A stretch of DNA of 31,629 nt, taken from the NCBI GenBank assembly GCA_030148625.1, contig JASBTC010000354.1:1-31629 (forward strand). The letters run 5' to 3'. Shown here one piece after another: positions 3,711-30,743 of this stretch (position 1 is the first letter of the stretch; every line of letters begins with the position of its first letter). The notes beneath the pieces were generated by a model that worked only from the letters and a program-made list of their open reading frames with translations, was not told the origin of the DNA and did not search any database. The position numbers were made by a program, and so were the translations under genes. Source of the DNA: Sphingobium sp. GTDB taxonomy: Bacteria; Pseudomonadota; Alphaproteobacteria; Sphingomonadales; Sphingomonadaceae.

Positions 3711-3759
3711 ACCCGATCCGCCTTCGGATTGATCAAAATCAGCGACAGGCGGACTTTAA

Positions 3760-3774
3760 GAACATATAGTGAAC
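3760..3774 (+). promoter_or_regulatory. LexA (SOS) box overlapping a putative -10 element
   Basis: The sequence GAAC-ATATAGT-GAAC is an exact match to the alphaproteobacterial LexA operator (GAAC-N7-GAAC, equal to GTTC-N7-GTTC on the other strand). Inside it lies TATAGT (3765-3770), a good -10 hexamer. Seven bases further is the ATG at 3777, so transcription would begin at or next to the start codon. LexA bound here would cover the -10 element and repress the radical SAM gene until DNA damage. The same operator type occurs at 28846-28860. Confidence 0.85.
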
Positions 3775-3776
3775 AC

Positions 3777-5021
3777 ATGTCCCAGCTCGATGTCCGCCAG
3801 AAGCTCGAAATCCTTGCCGATGCCGCCAAATACGACGCGTCCTGCGCGTCGTCGGGAACGGTCAAGCGCGACTCGGCCAGGGGCAAGGGGATCGGTTCGA
3901 CCGAGGGCATGGGAATCTGCCATGCCTATGCGCCCGACGGCCGCTGCATCTCGCTGCTCAAGATCCTGCTGACCAACAGCTGCATCTTCGACTGCCATTA
4001 TTGCATCAATCGCAAGAGTTCGAATGTGCGGCGCGCGCGCTTCACTGCGAAGGAGGTCGTGGACCTGACGCTCGCTTTCTACCGGCGCAACTATATCGAG
4101 GGGCTGTTCCTCTCCTCGGGCATCATCCGATCGTCCGACTATACGATGGAGCAGATCGTCGAGGTGGCGCGATCGCTGCGCGAGGATCATGATTTTCGCG
4201 GCTATATCCATCTCAAGACGATCCCCGACGCCGATCCAGACCTGATCCATCAGGCAGGGCTTCATGCCGATCGCATGTCGATCAATGTCGAGCTGCCCAC
4301 CGAGCGCGGCCTCAAGCGGCTGGCGCCCGAGAAATCGGGCGTACGGATCGAAGGGGCGATGGCGGGGCTGAAGGCCGCGATCGTCGATACCGCCGATGCG
4401 CGCGCGCATTACAGGCACGCGCCGGATTTCGCGCCGGCCGGCCAGTCGACCCAGATGATCGTCGGCGCAGACGCTGCGACCGATGGCGACATCGTGATGC
4501 GTGCGAACAGCCTTTACGATCGTTTCGCGCTGCGGCGCGTCTATTATTCGGCATTCAGCCCGATCCCCGATGCCAGCGCGGTGCTGCCCTTGCGTCGTCC
4601 GCCGCTGATGCGAGAGCATCGGCTCTATCAGTCCGACTGGCTGATCCGCTTCTATGGATTCGCGGCGGACGAGGTTGTCGCCGCCGCCGACGATAGCGGC
4701 ATGCTGCCGCTCGATATCGATCCCAAGCTTGCCTGGGCGCTCAAGCATCGCGATCGCTTTCCGGTCGACGTCAACCGCGCGCCGCGCACGATGCTGCTCC
4801 GGATTCCGGGGCTGGGCGTGAAGGCGGTGGACGCGATCCTGACCGCGCGGCGCTGGCGCCGGCTGGGCCTTGCGGATCTTGCGCGGCTGACCGTCTCGGT
4901 CACGAAGCTTCGACCGTTCCTGATCGCGGAGGACTGGCGACCGGTCGCTTTGGCCGATGCCGCGGACCTGCGTCCGCTGGTGAGGCCGAAGCGCAAACAG
5001 CTGGAACTGTTCGACGCATGA
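3777..5021 (+). CDS. Putative DNA modification/repair radical SAM protein
   Basis: 414 residues. The radical SAM cluster motif CX3CX2C is present as CIFDCHYC (C69, C73, C76) and should bind a [4Fe-4S] cluster and S-adenosylmethionine. The surrounding sequence (GRCISLLKILLTNSC before it; NIELP-like NVELPTERGL and YYSAFSPIP later) matches the family annotated as DNA modification/repair radical SAM protein, whose genes are typically next to a DUF4130/UdgX-type gene, as here. A helix-hairpin-helix segment (RIPGLGVKAVDAIL, from about residue 342) near the C-terminus suggests DNA binding. The chemistry and substrate are unknown. The start at 3777 fits family length; an earlier in-frame TTG at 3729 would place the LexA box inside the gene and is unlikely. 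No ribosome site precedes 3777, consistent with leaderless translation. Confidence 0.9.
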   Translation: MSQLDVRQKLEILADAAKYDASCASSGTVKRDSARGKGIGSTEGMGICHAYAPDGRCISLLKILLTNSCIFDCHYCINRKSSNVRRARFTAKEVVDLTLAFYRRNYIEGLFLSSGIIRSSDYTMEQIVEVARSLREDHDFRGYIHLKTIPDADPDLIHQAGLHADRMSINVELPTERGLKRLAPEKSGVRIEGAMAGLKAAIVDTADARAHYRHAPDFAPAGQSTQMIVGADAATDGDIVMRANSLYDRFALRRVYYSAFSPIPDASAVLPLRRPPLMREHRLYQSDWLIRFYGFAADEVVAAADDSGMLPLDIDPKLAWALKHRDRFPVDVNRAPRTMLLRIPGLGVKAVDAILTARRWRRLGLADLARLTVSVTKLRPFLIAEDWRPVALADAADLRPLVRPKRKQLELFDA

Positions 5022-5064
5022 GCGATTCGGATCGTCGCATTCATGCCGTCTTGCCATGGCGCTC

Positions 5065-5091
5065 CGACTCGGCTTCATTAGGGCCGAGTCG
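5065..5091 (+). other. Hairpin immediately before a ribosome site
   Basis: CGACTCGGC (5065-5073) and GCCGAGTCG (5083-5091) form a perfect nine-pair stem with a nine-base loop. The 3' arm ends one base before the ribosome site GGGAGAAG of the membrane protein gene at 5103. No T run follows, so a role as terminator is doubtful. It may protect or pace the message between the radical SAM gene and the next gene. Confidence 0.5.
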
Positions 5092-5102
5092 AGGGAGAAG
5101 AC

Positions 5103-5411
5103 ATGGCATCCCAACCGTTCGATCGCGATATCTGGAAGCGGCGTGTGTCGAACAACAGCGCGGGCGCGCTGATCGTGTTCGCGCTGTTGCACATATTGTG
5201 CCTCGCCGCCGCGTCGGGTCATGCCGCGCCGCTGCATATGATCGCGCTCGTGCTGCCGGTGATGGCCGTGATTCCGCTGATGGCGCGCTTCGAGGCCTAT
5301 TGGATTGCCCGCCCCGATGCCGGTGCCTTTCGCCGCGCGGCGGGTCTGCTCTGGGTGGCGGCGGTGGTCGTACCTTTCCTCTGGAGCGGGCTCTATCGCC
5401 TGATCGGTTGA
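5103..5411 (+). CDS. Small integral membrane protein, three predicted helices
   Basis: 102 residues with a charged N-terminus (DRDIWKRRVSNNS) and three hydrophobic stretches: about residues 20-38 (ALIVFALLHILCLAAAS), 44-61 (LHMIALVLPVMAVIPLMA) and 80-98 (AAGLLWVAAVVVPFLWSGL). It should sit in the inner membrane with its N-terminus in the cytoplasm. I do not recognise a named family. A strong ribosome site (GGGAGAAG) lies at the right distance before the ATG. The gene lies 81 bases after the radical SAM stop and 52 bases before the hemerythrin gene, so it is probably co-transcribed with them, but no function can be assigned. Confidence 0.78.
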   Translation: MASQPFDRDIWKRRVSNNSAGALIVFALLHILCLAAASGHAAPLHMIALVLPVMAVIPLMARFEAYWIARPDAGAFRRAAGLLWVAAVVVPFLWSGLYRLIG

Positions 5412-5413
5412 AC

Positions 5414-5456
5414 CCGGACGCAGGTCCGGCCGTTGAACCTCCGAACTGAACGGAGG
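5414..5456 (+). promoter_or_regulatory. Tandem hairpins; the second hides the ribosome site of the hemerythrin gene
   Basis: Hairpin 1: CCGGAC (5414-5419), loop GCAG, GTCCGG (5424-5429). Hairpin 2: CCTCCG (5438-5443), loop of seven, CGGAGG (5451-5456). The second 3' arm contains GGAGG, the Shine-Dalgarno sequence of the ATG at 5464. When folded, the ribosome site is fully paired, which would reduce translation of the hemerythrin gene unless the stem is opened by heat, a factor or ribosomes arriving from upstream. Confidence 0.55.
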
Positions 5457-5463
5457 CATATCG

Positions 5464-5919
5464 ATGGCAAACGCCGAAATCTTCGAACGACTGAAGCAGG
5501 ATCATGACCGGCATCGCATGATGCTGGCGAAGATCGACGAGACCAAGGGCGACAGCGAAGAGCGCCGCGCGCTGTTCGAGGCGTTTCGCATCGAGGTCAC
5601 TGCGCATGCCGCGGCTGAAGAGGAATCTCTCTACGCGACGATGCTCGCCAAACCCGACCTGCGCGAGGACGCCCAGCATTCGGTGTCGGAGCATAAGGAG
5701 ATCGACGATTTCCTCGAGGAGCTCGACGAGATGGAATTCTCGTCGCCCGGCTGGCTGACGCGCTTTCGCGCGATGCGTCATCGCTACGAGCATCATATCG
5801 ACGAGGAAGAGGAAGAGATGTTTCCCGACGCGGCGAAGCAATTGACCGGCGAAGAGGAAGCCCGGCTCGCCGAAGTCTTCAAGCGGCGCAAGCCGGCCGA
5901 ACTCGAACGGGCGAAATAG
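5464..5919 (+). CDS. Hemerythrin-like (HHE) domain protein
   Basis: 151 residues forming a predicted four-helix bundle. Likely diiron ligands are in the expected order: H14 (LKQDHDRH), H48 and E52 (TAHAAAEEE), H77 (SEHKEID), H110 or H111 and a nearby glutamate (YEHHIDEEEEE). Proteins of this family bind two iron atoms and sense or store oxygen, nitric oxide or iron; which applies here is not known. The protein is acidic and has no signal peptide, so it is cytoplasmic. The ribosome site GGAGG is strong but lies in a hairpin. The stop codon is only six bases before the start of the UdgX gene, which strongly suggests translational coupling with it. Confidence 0.9.
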   Translation: MANAEIFERLKQDHDRHRMMLAKIDETKGDSEERRALFEAFRIEVTAHAAAEEESLYATMLAKPDLREDAQHSVSEHKEIDDFLEELDEMEFSSPGWLTRFRAMRHRYEHHIDEEEEEMFPDAAKQLTGEEEARLAEVFKRRKPAELERAK

Positions 5920-5925
5920 ACAGGA

Positions 5926-7317
5926 ATGCGTGTCGCGTCGCTGGCCGGCGAAGATGATTTCGAAGGTTGGCGGCGTGATGCGAGGACGCTGGCGCTTGCC
6001 GGCATCTCACCGGCGGATATCGTCTGGCAGGTGGGTGAAACCCCGGTCGATCTGTTCGCGGATATACCGGTGATGCCGACGGCGCGTGCCGCCTTTTCGG
6101 TGCCGCGCCCCTTTCTCGAGCTCGCCGAAACAGCGATCCTGCATCGCGATGCCGAACGTTTCGCCTTGCTCTACACTTTATTGCTGCGGTTGCTGAGCCA
6201 GCCGGGCCTGATCGAGGATCGCGCCGATCCGCTGATCAGGCGACTGGAACATATGGCCGGATCGGTGCGGCGCGACATCCACAAGATGCGCGCTTTCCTG
6301 CGCTTCCGCGAAGTGACCGAAGCCGATACCACGCGTTTCGTCGCCTGGTTCGAGCCCGAGCATCATATCGTGCGCGCCAATGCCGGTTTCTTCGTGCGTC
6401 GCTTCCCCAATATGCGCTGGTCGATCCTGACGCCCGAATTGTCACTGCACTGGGATGATGAAACGCTTTCCGAGGGGCCGGGTGCGTGCCGCGAGGATGC
6501 GCCTGACGACGATCCGGTCGAAGCGGTGTGGAAGACCTATTATGCGTCGACCTTCAATCCGGCACGGCTGAAGCCCGGCATGATGTTGAAGGAGATGCCG
6601 CGAAAATATTGGCACAACATGCCCGAAACCGCGTTGGTGCCGCAGTTGATCGCAGGCGCGCAGGCGCGGGAGAGTGGCATGATCCGGACGGCCAGGGCGA
6701 CGGCGCCGACCAATATAGGCGCGGCCTGGACAGCGCTCCGCGAGGAAGCTGCGGGTTGCACGCGCTGCGACCTCCACAGATATGCGACGCAGACCGTCTT
6801 CGGCGAAGGGCCGCTCGATGCCGAGATCATGCTGGTCGGCGAACAGCCCGGCGATCAGGAGGATCAGCAGGGCCGCCCATTTGTCGGGCCGGCCGGCAAG
6901 CTGCTCGACGAGGCGCTGGCGGCGGCGGGGATCGATCGCGGCAAAGTCTATGTCACCAACGCCGTCAAGCATTTCAAATATGAGCAGCGCGGCAAGCGCC
7001 GCATCCATCAGCGTCCGCTGACCAGCGAGATCAAGGCCTGCAAATGGTGGATCGAGCAGGAAACTCTCTTGATCCGGCCCAAAGTGACCGTGGCGCTGGG
7101 CACGACCGCGGCGCAATCGATCTTCGGCCGGGCGATGAAGATCGGCGACAGCCGAGGCAGGGCGCTCGACCTGCCCGATGGCGGTGAAGGCTGGATCACC
7201 ATCCATCCCAGCTATCTGCTGCGCATGCAGGGCGATGTGGAAGCGGAGCGTGCGCGCTTCGTCGATGAATTGCGTATGGCGGCGCGAAGCGTGGCTGGGC
7301 CGACTCAAATGCAATAA
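5926..7317 (+). CDS. udgX: DUF4130 - UdgX fusion, uracil-DNA-binding/glycosylase superfamily protein
   Basis: 463 residues. Residues 1 to about 245 match the DUF4130 partner domain of the radical SAM family (start DFEGWRRDARTLALAGISP; later FVAWFEPEHHIVRANAGFF). Residues from about 262 are a UdgX-type family 4-like uracil-DNA glycosylase domain: cluster cysteines C278 and C281 (CTRC) and C372 (KACKWW), active-site motif GEQPGDQED at 305-313, the KRRIHQRP loop at 357-364, and HPS at 427-429. In mycobacterial UdgX the histidine of this loop becomes covalently joined to the sugar after uracil removal; the matching residue here is H361. The protein should therefore trap uracil-containing DNA. Start at 5926 fits the family; the AGGA before it is very close, so coupling to the hemerythrin gene probably helps initiation. 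Confidence 0.93.
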   Translation: MRVASLAGEDDFEGWRRDARTLALAGISPADIVWQVGETPVDLFADIPVMPTARAAFSVPRPFLELAETAILHRDAERFALLYTLLLRLLSQPGLIEDRADPLIRRLEHMAGSVRRDIHKMRAFLRFREVTEADTTRFVAWFEPEHHIVRANAGFFVRRFPNMRWSILTPELSLHWDDETLSEGPGACREDAPDDDPVEAVWKTYYASTFNPARLKPGMMLKEMPRKYWHNMPETALVPQLIAGAQARESGMIRTARATAPTNIGAAWTALREEAAGCTRCDLHRYATQTVFGEGPLDAEIMLVGEQPGDQEDQQGRPFVGPAGKLLDEALAAAGIDRGKVYVTNAVKHFKYEQRGKRRIHQRPLTSEIKACKWWIEQETLLIRPKVTVALGTTAAQSIFGRAMKIGDSRGRALDLPDGGEGWITIHPSYLLRMQGDVEAERARFVDELRMAARSVAGPTQMQ

Positions 7318-27495: not shown

Positions 27496-28818
27496 CTATT
27501 CGTGGAATTCAGCCAAGCTGGGGATACGTCCGAACGCGATGCGCGCACCGACATGGTCGATCCGGCCGCCATGAAGCGGCCCGACGCTGACCGCATTGCG
27601 CCCGAATCGCTCGTTGATCCGGTCCATGGCGCAACTCAGCGCAAGGTTTCGGGTCTCGCGCGCCAGCGGATCGTCGGGATCGAGATGCGCGAAAAGCGAT
27701 GCCTGTTCGCCGTCGACGGGTTCGATCTCGGCGATGGTGACGCCCACCATGCGCATCCGAAAACCGCCACGCCGCGCACACCCGGCATCGCGCAGCCGCA
27801 GCCACAGTTTTTCGAGTGCCGCTAGGATCGCGAAACTGTCCTGCGTCGCGGGCAGCTTGTGACTGGCGCGCCAGTTGCTCTTGTCGTCCTCGAACTTGGC
27901 ATGGAGCACGAGCAGCCGGGCGCGACAGGCCTTGCGCCGCAGCCGGCTGGCGCATTTGAGCGCGAGCCGGCGCGCGGTGAGCCGCGTCGCCTCGATCCCG
28001 CGCTTGGTTGGCGACAGCACATGACTGTGACCGATCGTGCGATGCTGGGTGGGTTTGTTCGGCAGATCGACGCCGTGCAGCAGATACCAGAGCCTGTCGC
28101 CGTTGACGCCGCCCCAGGCATTGCCGGCGTCGCGCGGCCGCCGTGCGCAGAGCTGGGCGATATCGTTGATCCCGTCCTGGGCGAGGCGCCGTTCCATCTT
28201 CGCGCCGATCCCGGCGATCGCGCGCAGCGGCAGGTCGAACAGCCGGTCGGGCAGTTCCTCCGCGCGCAATATGGTGAGTCCGTCGGGCTTCACCATGTCC
28301 GAGGCAAGCTTGGCGAGCAGCCGATTGGGCGCGATCCCGACCGACGCGGTCAGGCAGTCTCCGACATGGGCGCGGATCCCGGCCTTGATGCGGCATGCAA
28401 GGGCATGTGCGCCGGCCTCGTCATTCTCGTTGTCGAGCAGGCGACAGGCGACCTCATCGATCGAGCAGACCGCATGGACCGGCACGTGCCGCTCGACTTC
28501 GGCGACGATGGCGTCGTGGAAACGGACATATTCCATGTGCCTGGCCGGGGTGACGATGATGTCGCGGCACCGGCGTTTCGCTTCCCAGACCGGGGTTCCG
28601 GTGGAAATGCCGTAGCGCTTGGCTTCGACCGAAGCGGCAATGGCGACGGTCGTGTCACTTCCCACCGGCGCCACGATGACCGGCTTGCCGCGCAGTGCGG
28701 GCTGGAGCTGCTGTTCGACCGCGGCGAAATAGCTGTTCAGGTCGACATAGAGCCAGCGCAGCGGCCGCGGCGGAAAGGTGAGGGGCTTGCCCGTGCTTGG
28801 GGGCGACTCGGTCTGCAT
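27496..28818 (-). CDS. SOS-controlled Y-family DNA polymerase (DinB/UmuC superfamily)
   Basis: 440 residues. Palm motifs with catalytic acids are intact: LYVDLNSYFAAVEQQ (first Asp) and CSIDEVACRLL (Asp-Glu), so unlike ImuB it should be an active translesion polymerase. A tyrosine/phenylalanine pair sits at the sugar-selecting position. A helix-hairpin-helix (AGIGAKMERRLAQDGI) follows, then a thumb and a little-finger domain. QASLF at 372-376 resembles a beta-clamp-binding motif. The name ImpB/MucB/SamB family protein has been used for such genes. The ATG at 28818 lies 28 bases inside a LexA box at 28846-28860. It is not the dnaE2/imuAB cassette; no imuA or dnaE2 is in the window. Confidence 0.93.
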   Translation of the reverse strand: MQTESPPSTGKPLTFPPRPLRWLYVDLNSYFAAVEQQLQPALRGKPVIVAPVGSDTTVAIAASVEAKRYGISTGTPVWEAKRRCRDIIVTPARHMEYVRFHDAIVAEVERHVPVHAVCSIDEVACRLLDNENDEAGAHALACRIKAGIRAHVGDCLTASVGIAPNRLLAKLASDMVKPDGLTILRAEELPDRLFDLPLRAIAGIGAKMERRLAQDGINDIAQLCARRPRDAGNAWGGVNGDRLWYLLHGVDLPNKPTQHRTIGHSHVLSPTKRGIEATRLTARRLALKCASRLRRKACRARLLVLHAKFEDDKSNWRASHKLPATQDSFAILAALEKLWLRLRDAGCARRGGFRMRMVGVTIAEIEPVDGEQASLFAHLDPDDPLARETRNLALSCAMDRINERFGRNAVSVGPLHGGRIDHVGARIAFGRIPSLAEFHE

Positions 28819-28845
28819 CTTCGGGTGCGGACGCTATCACTATAA

Positions 28846-28860
28846 GAACATAAAGTGAAC
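28846..28860 (-). promoter_or_regulatory. LexA (SOS) box of the Y-family polymerase gene
   Basis: GAAC-ATAAAGT-GAAC on the plus strand (GTTC-N7-GTTC in the direction of the gene) is an exact alphaproteobacterial LexA operator. On the minus strand TATAGT (28844-28839) follows at once, a good -10 hexamer; transcription would begin near 28832, about 14 bases before the ATG at 28818. LexA bound here would lie next to and upstream of the -10 element. Confidence 0.9.
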
Positions 28861-28943: not shown

Positions 28944-30743
28944 ATGACCGCGACGATGTTTGCGTCGCGTTCCTTCGGTACCGCCGCTCGCCGTCGCCGT
29001 GCGGCCCTGCTTGGGCTGGCCTATTTCGTGGCGGCGAGCGCTGCGGTCGCGCTGACCCGTTTCGAGGGTGGCGTCGCCTGCCTCTGGATTGCCAATGCCC
29101 TGCTGCTCGCCGCTCTGTCGTCCCGGCTCTTTCGCGACTGGGCCGCGCCGATGCTGGCCTGCGGCGTGGCGGGGGTGGCGGCGACGACGGTCTTCGGCCT
29201 GGGCTTCGGTCCGGCGCTGCCGATGGCAGTGTCGAACATGGCGGAGGTCGCGGTCTCGGCGGCGCTGCTCGCGCGCTGGCGGTTGCGCAAGGATGCGCTG
29301 GGCTCGCTTTCGCAATTCTCGGCCTTCGTGCTTGCCGCCGGCTTTGCGGGGCCGATCCTGGGTGCACTCGCCGGCGGCCTGACGGCATCGCTCGCTTCGG
29401 CGACGCCGCTCTGGTCGAACATCGTCAACTGGTATCTCGGCCATGCGCTTGGCGCACTCGCCTTCTTTCCGGTCTTCGCCTTTGTCCTGAACGGCGACAT
29501 CAAGCGCTGGGTCGGCGGGGCCGGTCGTCGACAGTTGAGCGAGGGGATCGCGGTGCTGACGCTGGTCGCTGCGACCACCTTGGCGGTCTTCGTGCAGAAC
29601 CGGTTTCCCGTCCTGTTCCTGCCGATCCTGCCAGTGATCCTGGCGACGTTCTGGCTCGGCCGGTTGGGGGCCGCGGTCTCGGTGGTGCTGATCGCGATCA
29701 TCGGCGGCACGCTCACCGCGCGTGGGATGGGGCCGATCTATCTGATCGAAGGCGGTACGCTGGCGCATGTCCAGTTCTTCCAATTCTACCTGGCCGCGAC
29801 GGTGCTCTCCGCCTTGCCGGTCGCCGCGGAACTCAAGCGTCGCAAGCGGCTGGGCGACCGGCTGCGCGACAGCGAGGCGCGCTATCGGCTGATGACCGAC
29901 AATTCGACCGATATCGTGATGAATCTCGATCCGGGCGGCATCATCCGCTACGTGTCGCCCTCCATCGTCCAGATCGGCGGCTATTCGGTCGAGGCGCTGA
30001 TGGGCACGCCCGTGATCGAACTGGTGATAGCCGAGGACCGGGAACGTGTCCGCACGGTCCATGTCGCCGCGCTCGGTGCACCCGCCCAGACCTTCATGGT
30101 CGAATATCGGGGCGTGACGGCAGACGGATCCGTGCGCTGGTTCGAGACCACGACACGCAGCGTCCCCGACGAGAATGGCAGGATCGTCGGCGTTGTCAGC
30201 GCCATCCGCGACATTTCCCATCGCAAGCTGGTCGAGGCCGAACTGACGCGCGCGGCAACCATCGATCCGCTGACCGGATTGTTCAATCGGCGCGGCTTCA
30301 ACGCGGAGTTCAACCGGCGGCTCGCCGAGGCGCGGGGCTCGCGGCTGAACGGGTGCCTCGCGATCTTCGACGTCGATCACTTCAAACGGGTCAACGATAC
30401 CTATGGCCATGACGCCGGCGATCAGGTGCTCGAAAGCTTCGCGTCGATCGCCAAGCGGACGGTGCGCGATTCCGATCTGATCGGGCGACTGGGCGGTGAA
30501 GAATTCGCGATCATCCTTCCCGGCGTGACGATCGATCAGGCGCACTATATCTGCGACCGGCTCCGCATCGCGGTGGGCGAGACCGCCTTGTTCTGGGGAA
30601 CGGCGAGCATCCGGGTGACGGTGAGCGCGGGTGTCGCCAGATTCGACGGCCATGCCAATCCCGAACGTGTGCTGAAGGCGGCGGACACCGCGCTTTATGC
30701 CGCGAAGAATGCGGGGCGCGACAGGTTGATGATCGCGGCCTGA
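28944..30743 (+). CDS. Membrane-bound diguanylate cyclase: MASE1-PAS-GGDEF
   Basis: 599 residues. Residues 20-295 are a polytopic membrane domain of the MASE1 type (eight or so hydrophobic helices; FEGGVACLWIANALLLAALS and WYLGHALGALAFFPVFA are typical blocks). A PAS domain follows at about 305-430 (DSEARYRLMTDNSTDIVMNL), then GGDEF at 440-595 with active site G517-G-E-E-F521. The inhibitory site RxxD (R508-D511) is present, so product feedback by c-di-GMP is expected. No EAL domain, so synthesis only. The start at 28944 has no clear ribosome site; an ATG at 28956 is possible. The gene is divergent from the polymerase gene. Confidence 0.93.
   Translation: MTATMFASRSFGTAARRRRAALLGLAYFVAASAAVALTRFEGGVACLWIANALLLAALSSRLFRDWAAPMLACGVAGVAATTVFGLGFGPALPMAVSNMAEVAVSAALLARWRLRKDALGSLSQFSAFVLAAGFAGPILGALAGGLTASLASATPLWSNIVNWYLGHALGALAFFPVFAFVLNGDIKRWVGGAGRRQLSEGIAVLTLVAATTLAVFVQNRFPVLFLPILPVILATFWLGRLGAAVSVVLIAIIGGTLTARGMGPIYLIEGGTLAHVQFFQFYLAATVLSALPVAAELKRRKRLGDRLRDSEARYRLMTDNSTDIVMNLDPGGIIRYVSPSIVQIGGYSVEALMGTPVIELVIAEDRERVRTVHVAALGAPAQTFMVEYRGVTADGSVRWFETTTRSVPDENGRIVGVVSAIRDISHRKLVEAELTRAATIDPLTGLFNRRGFNAEFNRRLAEARGSRLNGCLAIFDVDHFKRVNDTYGHDAGDQVLESFASIAKRTVRDSDLIGRLGGEEFAIILPGVTIDQAHYICDRLRIAVGETALFWGTASIRVTVSAGVARFDGHANPERVLKAADTALYAAKNAGRDRLMIAA

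What the first reader, a model, noticed from the sequence alone, without database searches (positions are those of the whole stretch)
3760..7317. SOS-controlled radical SAM / membrane protein / hemerythrin / UdgX group
Seen: a LexA box starts a four-gene same-strand run in which the DNA modification/repair radical SAM gene and the DUF4130-UdgX fusion, normally neighbours, are split by a small membrane protein and a hemerythrin-like gene. The last two genes are six bases apart. Known: the radical SAM family and DUF4130 co-occur, and UdgX binds uracil in DNA covalently. Inference: the group is one DNA-damage response unit in which the diiron protein may sense or handle oxygen or iron for two iron-sulfur enzymes. 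The product chemistry is not described to my knowledge.
Basis: partly seen in the sequence, partly recalled or inferred. Interest (0 to 1): 0.78.

Follow-up and report, generated by a model that had tools for sequence, protein, structure and literature searches.

The report
DNA-repair gene group with two switches
A bacterial DNA-repair gene group that appears to be switched on by DNA damage also carries, in front of its iron-protein gene, a second switch that looks like the one for general stress, which may help explain when the puzzling uracil-trapping protein UdgX is made.

Summary
Four same-strand genes (3777-7317) follow a LexA box (3760-3774): radical SAM (TIGR03916), a small membrane protein, a hemerythrin (HHE), and a DUF4130-UdgX fusion six bases behind it. 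The box lies at a fixed place before the radical SAM gene in 78 of 80 relatives and overlaps the -10 of a probably leaderless promoter. SOS control of such a pair is already in print. The one-unit reading is only half right. HHE lies behind radical SAM in 37 of 80 relatives, a membrane-protein relative in 3 of 80. HHE appears to have its own promoter, matching the published sphingomonad EcfG (general stress) motif: 39 of 46 HHE genes beside radical SAM and 20 of 21 others reach 8 bits, against 0 of 81 radical SAM and 10% of 588 other upstreams. HHE and the membrane gene also occur beside UdgX in genomes without radical SAM. Best model: an SOS promoter with read-through plus an internal general-stress-type promoter for HHE-UdgX. 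No expression data; the roles of HHE and the membrane protein are inferred or unknown.

The parts
3742..3770 (+). sigma-70-like promoter: GCGACA (3742-3747), 17 bases, TATAGT (3765-3770); the -10 lies inside the LexA box
   Evidence: relatives share CTTGACA at -19..-13 from the box start and TATA inside the box
3760..3774 (+). LexA box GAACATATAGTGAAC, two bases before the start codon; a leaderless transcript is inferred
3777..5021 (+). TIGR03916 radical SAM protein (CxxxCxxC at C69/C73/C76; further invariant C23, C48, C57)
5062..5095 (+). strong hairpin between radical SAM and membrane genes (-22.1 kcal/mol, z -3.4), no T tail, one stem mismatch in S. colocasiae
5103..5411 (+). 102-residue hydrophobic protein (three membrane spans by eye), no Pfam or NCBIfam family
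5409..5434 (+). EcfG-type promoter-like site TGAAC-N17-CGTT before HHE, overlapping the stop codon of the membrane gene
5438..5456 (+). hairpin CCTCCG/CGGAGG that would pair with the HHE ribosome-binding site; one stem pair changed on both sides in S. colocasiae
5464..5919 (+). hemerythrin-like (HHE) protein, 151 aa; H14, H48, E52, Y57, H72, H77, H111 among the residues invariant in 67 rows
5926..7317 (+). DUF4130-UdgX fusion, 463 aa; GEQPG, KRRIH and HPSYLLR motifs
6154..6627 (+). DUF4130 domain (residues 77-234 of the fusion)
6799..7272 (+). UdgX uracil-DNA glycosylase domain (residues 292-449 of the fusion)
28846..28860 (.). second exact LexA box GAACATAAAGTGAAC, upstream of the minus-strand Y-family polymerase gene 27496-28818 (internal control for the motif)

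Best explanation
The group is a LexA-controlled radical SAM + DUF4130-UdgX repair pair into which a general-stress hemerythrin gene with its own promoter has been built. Step 1 (box shown, control inferred): LexA sits on the -10 of the radical SAM promoter; DNA damage frees it and a leaderless transcript starts at or near the ATG. Step 2 (inferred): this transcript reads on through the membrane, HHE and UdgX genes. Step 3 (motif and its conservation shown, sigma factor inferred): an EcfG-type promoter at 5409-5434 gives a second transcript of HHE plus DUF4130-UdgX under general stress. Step 4 (published for relatives): UdgX cuts out uracil and stays covalently on the abasic site. Step 5 (co-occurrence shown in a chosen set, chemistry unknown): the radical SAM enzyme goes with DUF4130, not with UdgX as such. 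Step 6 (inference): the diiron HHE protein removes peroxide or nitric oxide and so spares the iron-sulfur clusters and lowers the damage that UdgX must cap. The membrane protein belongs to a family that is widespread in sphingomonads; its role here is unknown.
For: LexA box at a fixed place in 78 of 80 relatives; lexA over cut-off in 5 of 5 relatives searched and a NepR (general stress) match in 5 of 5, over cut-off in 4. EcfG-type site before HHE: two-block pattern in 30 of 46 HHE genes beside radical SAM (shuffle mean 0.46, maximum 2) and 12 of 21 others, but in 0 of 81 radical SAM, 0 of 37 and 0 of 39 UdgX, 0 of 7 membrane-gene upstreams. With a matrix made from 26 published S. melonis sites: at least 8 bits in 39 of 46 and 20 of 21, against 0 of 81 radical SAM, 2 of 37 UdgX behind HHE, 6% of 3000 random 110-mers and 10.4% of 588 other gene upstreams; the best site lies between -65 and -46 in 65 of 67. 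The site also precedes HHE at loci without radical SAM. HHE-UdgX spacing is at most 46 bases in 25 of 37 sequences. In genome G311 no radical SAM match was found, but a LexA box identical to the window's stands 2 bases before an ATG, followed by an EcfG-like site, HHE and a UdgX fusion whose DUF4130 part skips about 96 residues. In 42 chosen genomes radical SAM is present in 19 of 19 with a DUF4130 match reaching residue 248 or beyond and absent in 18 of 18 with UdgX but no DUF4130 match. The only PDB sequence match of HHE is 6q09 (43 bits), by recall the M. kansasii protein that is reported as an NO peroxidase with weak catalase activity (PMC8913304, abstract).
Against: No transcript or protein data were seen for any of this. 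HHE genes beside radical SAM have GAAAC, TGAAC or other -35 forms, none the strict GGAAC pattern (0 of 46), so another ECF sigma factor is possible. The window's own site (11.1 bits) is one of ten that good in the window, both strands, and a 10.5-bit match lies 100 bases before the membrane gene, inside the radical SAM coding end; the weight comes from conservation alone. UdgX genes without HHE also exceed background at 8 bits (11 of 39; 12 of 39). HHE is in the gap in only about half of the relatives, and among pairs of 86-90% identity it is shared less often (0.32) than the flanking genes (0.56 and 0.42). In the printed lists of 298 family genomes I count by eye 16 HHE genes within a few kb of UdgX and about 60 not (the UdgX list was cut). 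The gap also holds unrelated genes. A strong hairpin at 5062-5095 might hinder read-through.
Confidence: 0.52

Rival explanations
1. One reading: one SOS operon, a single transcript 3777-7317, with HHE made only as part of the DNA-damage response.
For: All genes are on one strand, the last two 6 bases apart; the LexA box is conserved; in G311 a LexA box stands directly upstream of HHE-UdgX.
Against: A conserved EcfG-type site stands before HHE here and at loci without a LexA box near HHE; hairpin at 5062-5095.
Confidence: 0.2
2. Passenger model: the space between radical SAM and UdgX tolerates insertions in sphingomonads; HHE and the membrane gene are neighbours without functional link to repair.
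For: Other genes sit in the same gap: a beta-helix protein in 6 loci, a 3-keto-disaccharide hydrolase, an ABC transporter, OmpW; HHE presence changes at least 13 times on the radical SAM tree, 5 of them forced by starred branches; HHE also occurs elsewhere with varied neighbours.
Against: In pairs under 78% identity with HHE in at least one, flanking genes are shared in 4% and 0% of 114 pairs but HHE in 33%; HHE and the membrane gene each recur next to UdgX without radical SAM, in two genomes each; dN/dS of HHE 0.05.
Confidence: 0.23
3. Growth-brake model: HHE (a distant relative of the P. aeruginosa persister protein PA2171, which binds ribosomes and FtsZ) and the small membrane protein slow translation or division during damage, while the other two genes repair.
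For: NF053874 matches residues 8-143 of HHE at 56.6 bits; PA2171 represses translation and division (PMC13041383, passages); small membrane proteins act as SOS division inhibitors in Caulobacter (recalled).
Against: The score is far below the family cut-off of 190; the membrane family is widespread (149 of 298 genomes), and distant copies sit beside an ABC ATPase gene in 15 of 16 loci examined and a pmbA/tldD gene in 10 of 16.
Confidence: 0.05

Closest known systems
SOS-regulated COG1573-COG4277 (UDG + partner) operon predicted in Bacteroidetes; UDG-based repair system reported under SOS in Verrucomicrobia and Alphaproteobacteria (PMC8565304, passages)
   Same: the same two gene families (COG4277 = this radical SAM family is recalled) behind a LexA box
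   Different: here the pair is split by two genes, and a second, EcfG-type promoter is predicted inside the group
UdgX with solved structures (PDB 6ajo and others; organism M. smegmatis recalled)
   Same: KRRIH loop and GEQPG motif present; 168.9 bits over the UDG domain
   Different: fused to DUF4130, and the fourth residue of motif B is Y (HPSYLLR) where the abstract of PMC10359453 gives S or A
EcfG (general stress) regulons of Sphingomonas melonis Fr1 and Sphingopyxis granuli TFA (PMC6599016, PMC7083833, passages)
   Same: two-block promoter GGAAC-N16/17-CGTT; sites mostly within 100 bases of the start
   Different: -35 is GAAAC or TGAAC in most matched HHE copies beside radical SAM; the word hemerythrin does not occur in either main text, but their supplements could not be read
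Mycobacterium kansasii hemerythrin-like protein (PDB 6q09 by recall)
   Same: the only PDB sequence match; a tyrosine aligns with invariant Y57
   Different: 43 bits only; whether Y57 binds iron is untested, and PMC8913304 calls the Tyr ligand special to mycobacteria

Membership tests
TIGR03916 radical SAM | score over curated cut-off 343.5 | tested here: met
   567.9 bits
TIGR03916 radical SAM | CxxxCxxC cluster motif | tested here: met
   C69, C73, C76 invariant in 35 rows
UdgX | TIGR03914 score over cut-off 189.95 | tested here: met
   297.4 bits
UdgX | KRRIH loop and motif A GEQPG | tested here: met
   both in the translation and aligned to 6ajo; motif list from the start of the abstract of PMC10359453
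UdgX | covalent bond to the abasic site | not testable with these tools
   needs a gel-shift assay on uracil DNA
TIGR03915 / DUF4130 | score over cut-off | tested here: met
   203.8 against 112.25; PF13566 131.2 against 27
Hemerythrin HHE (PF01814) | score over cut-off | tested here: met
   58.9 against 25.3; candidate His/Glu ligands invariant in 67 rows
PA2171 persister family (NF053874) | score over cut-off 190 | tested here: not met
   56.6 bits
RIC iron-sulfur repair (TIGR03652) | score over cut-off 204.7 | tested here: not met
   17.6 bits
SOS (LexA) regulon | LexA box at the promoter | tested here: met
SOS (LexA) regulon | induction by DNA damage, LexA binding | not testable with these tools
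   no expression data held
EcfG general stress regulon (HHE) | match to the published EcfG motif near the start, above control upstreams | tested here: met
   39 of 46 and 20 of 21 HHE upstreams at 8 bits or more against controls; window 11.1 bits
EcfG general stress regulon (HHE) | strict -35 GGAAC | tested here: not met
   0 of 46 HHE genes beside radical SAM, window included; 7 of 21 others
EcfG general stress regulon (HHE) | loss of expression in an ecfG mutant | not testable with these tools
   published supplementary tables not readable here
DHH/RecJ-like fold (DUF4130) | structural similarity | tested here: inconclusive
   [not shown]

The most novel reading that the evidence does not exclude
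HHE plus UdgX is the selected core: a two-input module (SOS and general stress) in which a diiron peroxidase-like protein is made together with the self-sacrificing UdgX, independently of the radical SAM/DUF4130 pair. G311, which lacks the radical SAM gene and part of DUF4130 but has a LexA box, an EcfG-like site, HHE and UdgX in a row, would be the reduced form.
Probability: 0.3. Interest if true: 0.7.

Novelty: new variant of a known kind. Interest (0 to 1): 0.52.

Why it matters
The physiological role of UdgX is called largely unknown by a group that studies it (PMC10359453, passage). If HHE-UdgX is driven both by LexA and by the general stress sigma factor, the conditions under which to look for a UdgX phenotype become concrete: DNA damage and general stresses such as salt or starvation. 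The co-occurrence pattern also suggests that the unsolved radical SAM chemistry should be studied with DUF4130 rather than with UdgX.

Tried and rejected
Inverted-repeat LexA box: no exact match; dropped. Heme-binding reading of the membrane protein (one source calls a relative 'cytochrome b'): no conserved histidine in 35 aligned rows. Terminator reading of the 5062-5095 hairpin: no T tail, and the scan lists no terminator there. Ribosome-binding-site hairpin before HHE: seen in the window, S. colocasiae and G037, not a general feature of the other HHE upstreams printed. A motif model trained on the HHE upstreams themselves is circular and was not used as evidence. Class-wide search for TIGR03916: 10 of 190 genomes, three of them (G001, G107, G057) already met, so too few to test insertion outside the family. 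Radical SAM structure prediction: mean pLDDT 62, not used. DUF4130 fold: no Foldseek match at E 0.001; weak DHH-like lead only. Papers: no hit for UdgX with radical SAM, UdgX with LexA, or hemerythrin with EcfG in the held library; hemerythrin + general stress response + alphaproteobacteria gave one Brucella paper, seen in the listing only. EcfG matrix before UdgX without HHE: where UdgX adjoins radical SAM, 6 of 24 reach 8 bits and 1 reaches 10, five of the six sites beginning inside the aligned radical SAM coding end; where it is 240 bases or more away, 6 of 15 reach 8 and 3 reach 12, which may be real and was only partly followed.
Full report
WHAT IS THERE. The radical SAM protein is a firm member of TIGR03916; the last gene carries DUF4130/TIGR03915 and UdgX/TIGR03914 domains with the UdgX loop KRRIH and the motif GEQPG. 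The third gene is a hemerythrin-domain protein. The second matches no family in Pfam or NCBIfam but looks to be under purifying selection: dN/dS against S. colocasiae is 0.17, and 0.09, 0.05 and 0.16 for radical SAM, HHE and UdgX. No whole genome is held for the window; the nearest relative found is S. colocasiae, 93% identical in radical SAM.

THE SOS PROMOTER. The box GAACATATAGTGAAC begins 17 bases before the radical SAM ATG. Eighty radical SAM loci from genomes and metagenome bins were fetched, the best 80 of 588 confirmed stretches; 78 of 80 have an exact GAACN7GAAC box beginning 17-19 bases before the start. L064 has none, and L076 has one in the other orientation at -42. Only 25 other boxes occur in 1,178,014 bases of these loci and the window. 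Aligning 79 promoters on the box shows CTTGACA at -19 to -13 and TATA inside the box; a separate scan finds GCGACA-17-TATAGT at 3742-3770 in the window. The -10 thus lies inside the operator, and a start 7 bases after it would fall on the ATG, so a leaderless transcript is likely (inference). A second exact box at 28846 stands before a Y-family polymerase gene; in the three lexA loci fetched from relatives, boxes lie within about 35 bases upstream of the lexA match. SOS regulation of a COG1573-COG4277 operon was predicted in Bacteroidetes, and a UDG-based repair system under SOS is said to be reported in Verrucomicrobia and Alphaproteobacteria (PMC8565304, passages; the two older papers it cites are not held). 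That COG4277 is this radical SAM family is recalled.

THE INSERTED GENES IN RELATIVES. Of 80 loci, 36 have HHE between radical SAM and UdgX and one more (L035, contig end) has HHE behind radical SAM; in 24 the pair is adjacent (gap under 240); 15 have a longer gap without HHE; in the remaining 4 neither UdgX nor HHE was found in the held DNA. A membrane-protein relative lies in the gap in 3 of 80 (L001 at 83% identity, L059 and L079 at 28-33%) and also in genome G037. The full four-gene order was seen in L001, L059 and G037 besides the window. Other inserts occur: a beta-helix protein in 6 loci, and single hydrolase, ABC transporter and OmpW genes. HHE presence changes at least 13 times on a radical SAM tree of 77 classified rows, 5 of them forced by starred branches.

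IS THE HHE LINK MORE THAN CHANCE NEIGHBOURHOOD? In 66 sequences with full flanks, pairs under 78% radical SAM identity with HHE in at least one (114 pairs) share the upstream gene in 4% and the downstream gene in 0%, but both have HHE in 33%. At 78-82% (507 pairs) the figures are 14%, 6% and 24%; at 82-86% (760 pairs), 26%, 19% and 37%. At 86-90% (209 pairs) the order turns: 56% and 42% for the flanks but 32% for HHE; above 90% (27 pairs), 78%, 56% and 78%. So HHE outlasts the neighbourhood over long distances but is also often gained or lost between fairly close relatives.

HHE HAS ITS OWN PROMOTER-LIKE SITE. While checking the gap I saw a repeated two-block sequence before HHE. The pattern G[GA]AAC or TGAAC, 15-18 bases, [CG]GTT occurs within 110 bases upstream in 30 of 46 HHE genes beside radical SAM (shuffles: mean 0.46, maximum 2) and 12 of 21 HHE genes not beside it in the held DNA, but in 0 of 81 radical SAM, 0 of 37 and 0 of 39 UdgX and 0 of 7 membrane-gene upstreams. 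It resembles the published EcfG motif, GGAAC-N16-CGTT in S. granuli and GGAAC-N17-20-GTT in S. melonis. As an independent test I built a matrix from 26 published S. melonis sites: at least 8 bits in 39 of 46 and 20 of 21 HHE upstreams, 0 of 81 radical SAM, 2 of 37 UdgX behind HHE, 11 of 39 UdgX without HHE, 6% of 3000 random 110-mers and 10.4% of 588 other gene upstreams; at 10 bits, 33 of 46 and 17 of 21 against 6%. The best site lies between -65 and -46 in 65 of 67. The window site is TGAAC-N17-CGTT at 5409-5434, 11.1 bits. The same matrix finds sites of 14.2-14.6 bits within 300 bases upstream of the nepR match in the three loci looked at, among other sites. Limits: among HHE genes beside radical SAM none has the strict GGAAC pattern (0 of 46; 7 of 21 of the others do), and the window has ten sites of 11 bits or more on both strands, so one site alone means little.

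WHO BELONGS TO WHOM. In 298 genomes of the family, HHE relatives (E 1e-20) occur in 124, UdgX (E 1e-30) in 205, membrane-family members (E 0.001, mostly distant) in 149. I then took 42 of these genomes, chosen because their UdgX match was weak, partial or missing, and searched radical SAM and the fusion again. All 19 with a DUF4130 match reaching residue 248 or beyond have radical SAM, 5 of them without a UdgX match (one of these, G286, with two stops inside the matched stretch); all 18 with UdgX but no DUF4130 match lack radical SAM; two with a shortened DUF4130 (G062, G311) lack it; three have neither match. Because the 42 were chosen, this is no frequency estimate, but the pairing radical SAM-DUF4130 is clear in them. 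HHE stands next to UdgX without radical SAM in G294 and G311, and a membrane-protein relative does so in G184 and G231. In G311 a box identical to the window's stands two bases before an ATG, followed within about 70 bases by an EcfG-like site and HHE, then UdgX. In the other 16 HHE loci fetched at 10 kb (L133-L148) no LexA box lies close to HHE, and the four neighbours identified one by one differ.

VERDICT. The most likely design is an SOS promoter at the front and a general-stress-type promoter in front of HHE-UdgX. The parts are known families, SOS control of the pair is known, and the second promoter is a prediction from conservation, so I rate it a new variant of a known kind with medium interest.

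Noticed in passing
window 5062-5095: Strong hairpin (-22.1 kcal/mol, z -3.4) between radical SAM and membrane genes without a T tail; G037 appears to have a different inverted repeat at the same place (read by eye).
   Followed up: partly
window 5438-5456: Hairpin pairing with the HHE ribosome-binding site, with a two-sided base-pair change between the window and S. colocasiae; not general among the other HHE loci.
   Followed up: partly
window 27496-28860: Y-family polymerase gene with its own LexA box GAACATAAAGTGAAC; a diguanylate cyclase gene (MASE1-PAS-GGDEF) starts divergently at 28944.
   Followed up: partly
window 3777-5021: Radical SAM protein has three further invariant cysteines (C23, C48, C57) besides the CxxxCxxC motif in 35 rows, which could hold a second cluster.
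   Followed up: no
L046, L055, L056 (upstream of UdgX): Where UdgX is separated from radical SAM and HHE is absent, UdgX itself has EcfG-like sites of 12.5-13.1 bits at about -36.
   Followed up: partly
L191, L194, L205 (upstream of UdgX without DUF4130): Of 21 loci examined, these three have an exact LexA box within 170 bases before the UdgX match, in genomes without radical SAM.
   Followed up: partly
L008, L023, L037, L071, L075, L077 (radical SAM-UdgX gap): A beta-helix/NosD-like protein recurs in the same gap in six loci; the gene behind it in L077 has only a sub-threshold cytochrome match.
   Followed up: partly
[not shown]
   Followed up: partly
L115-L130: Distant relatives of the membrane protein sit in a conserved neighbourhood with an ABC ATPase gene (LptB-like by eye; 15 of 16 loci) and a pmbA/tldD gene (10 of 16 loci).
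   Followed up: partly
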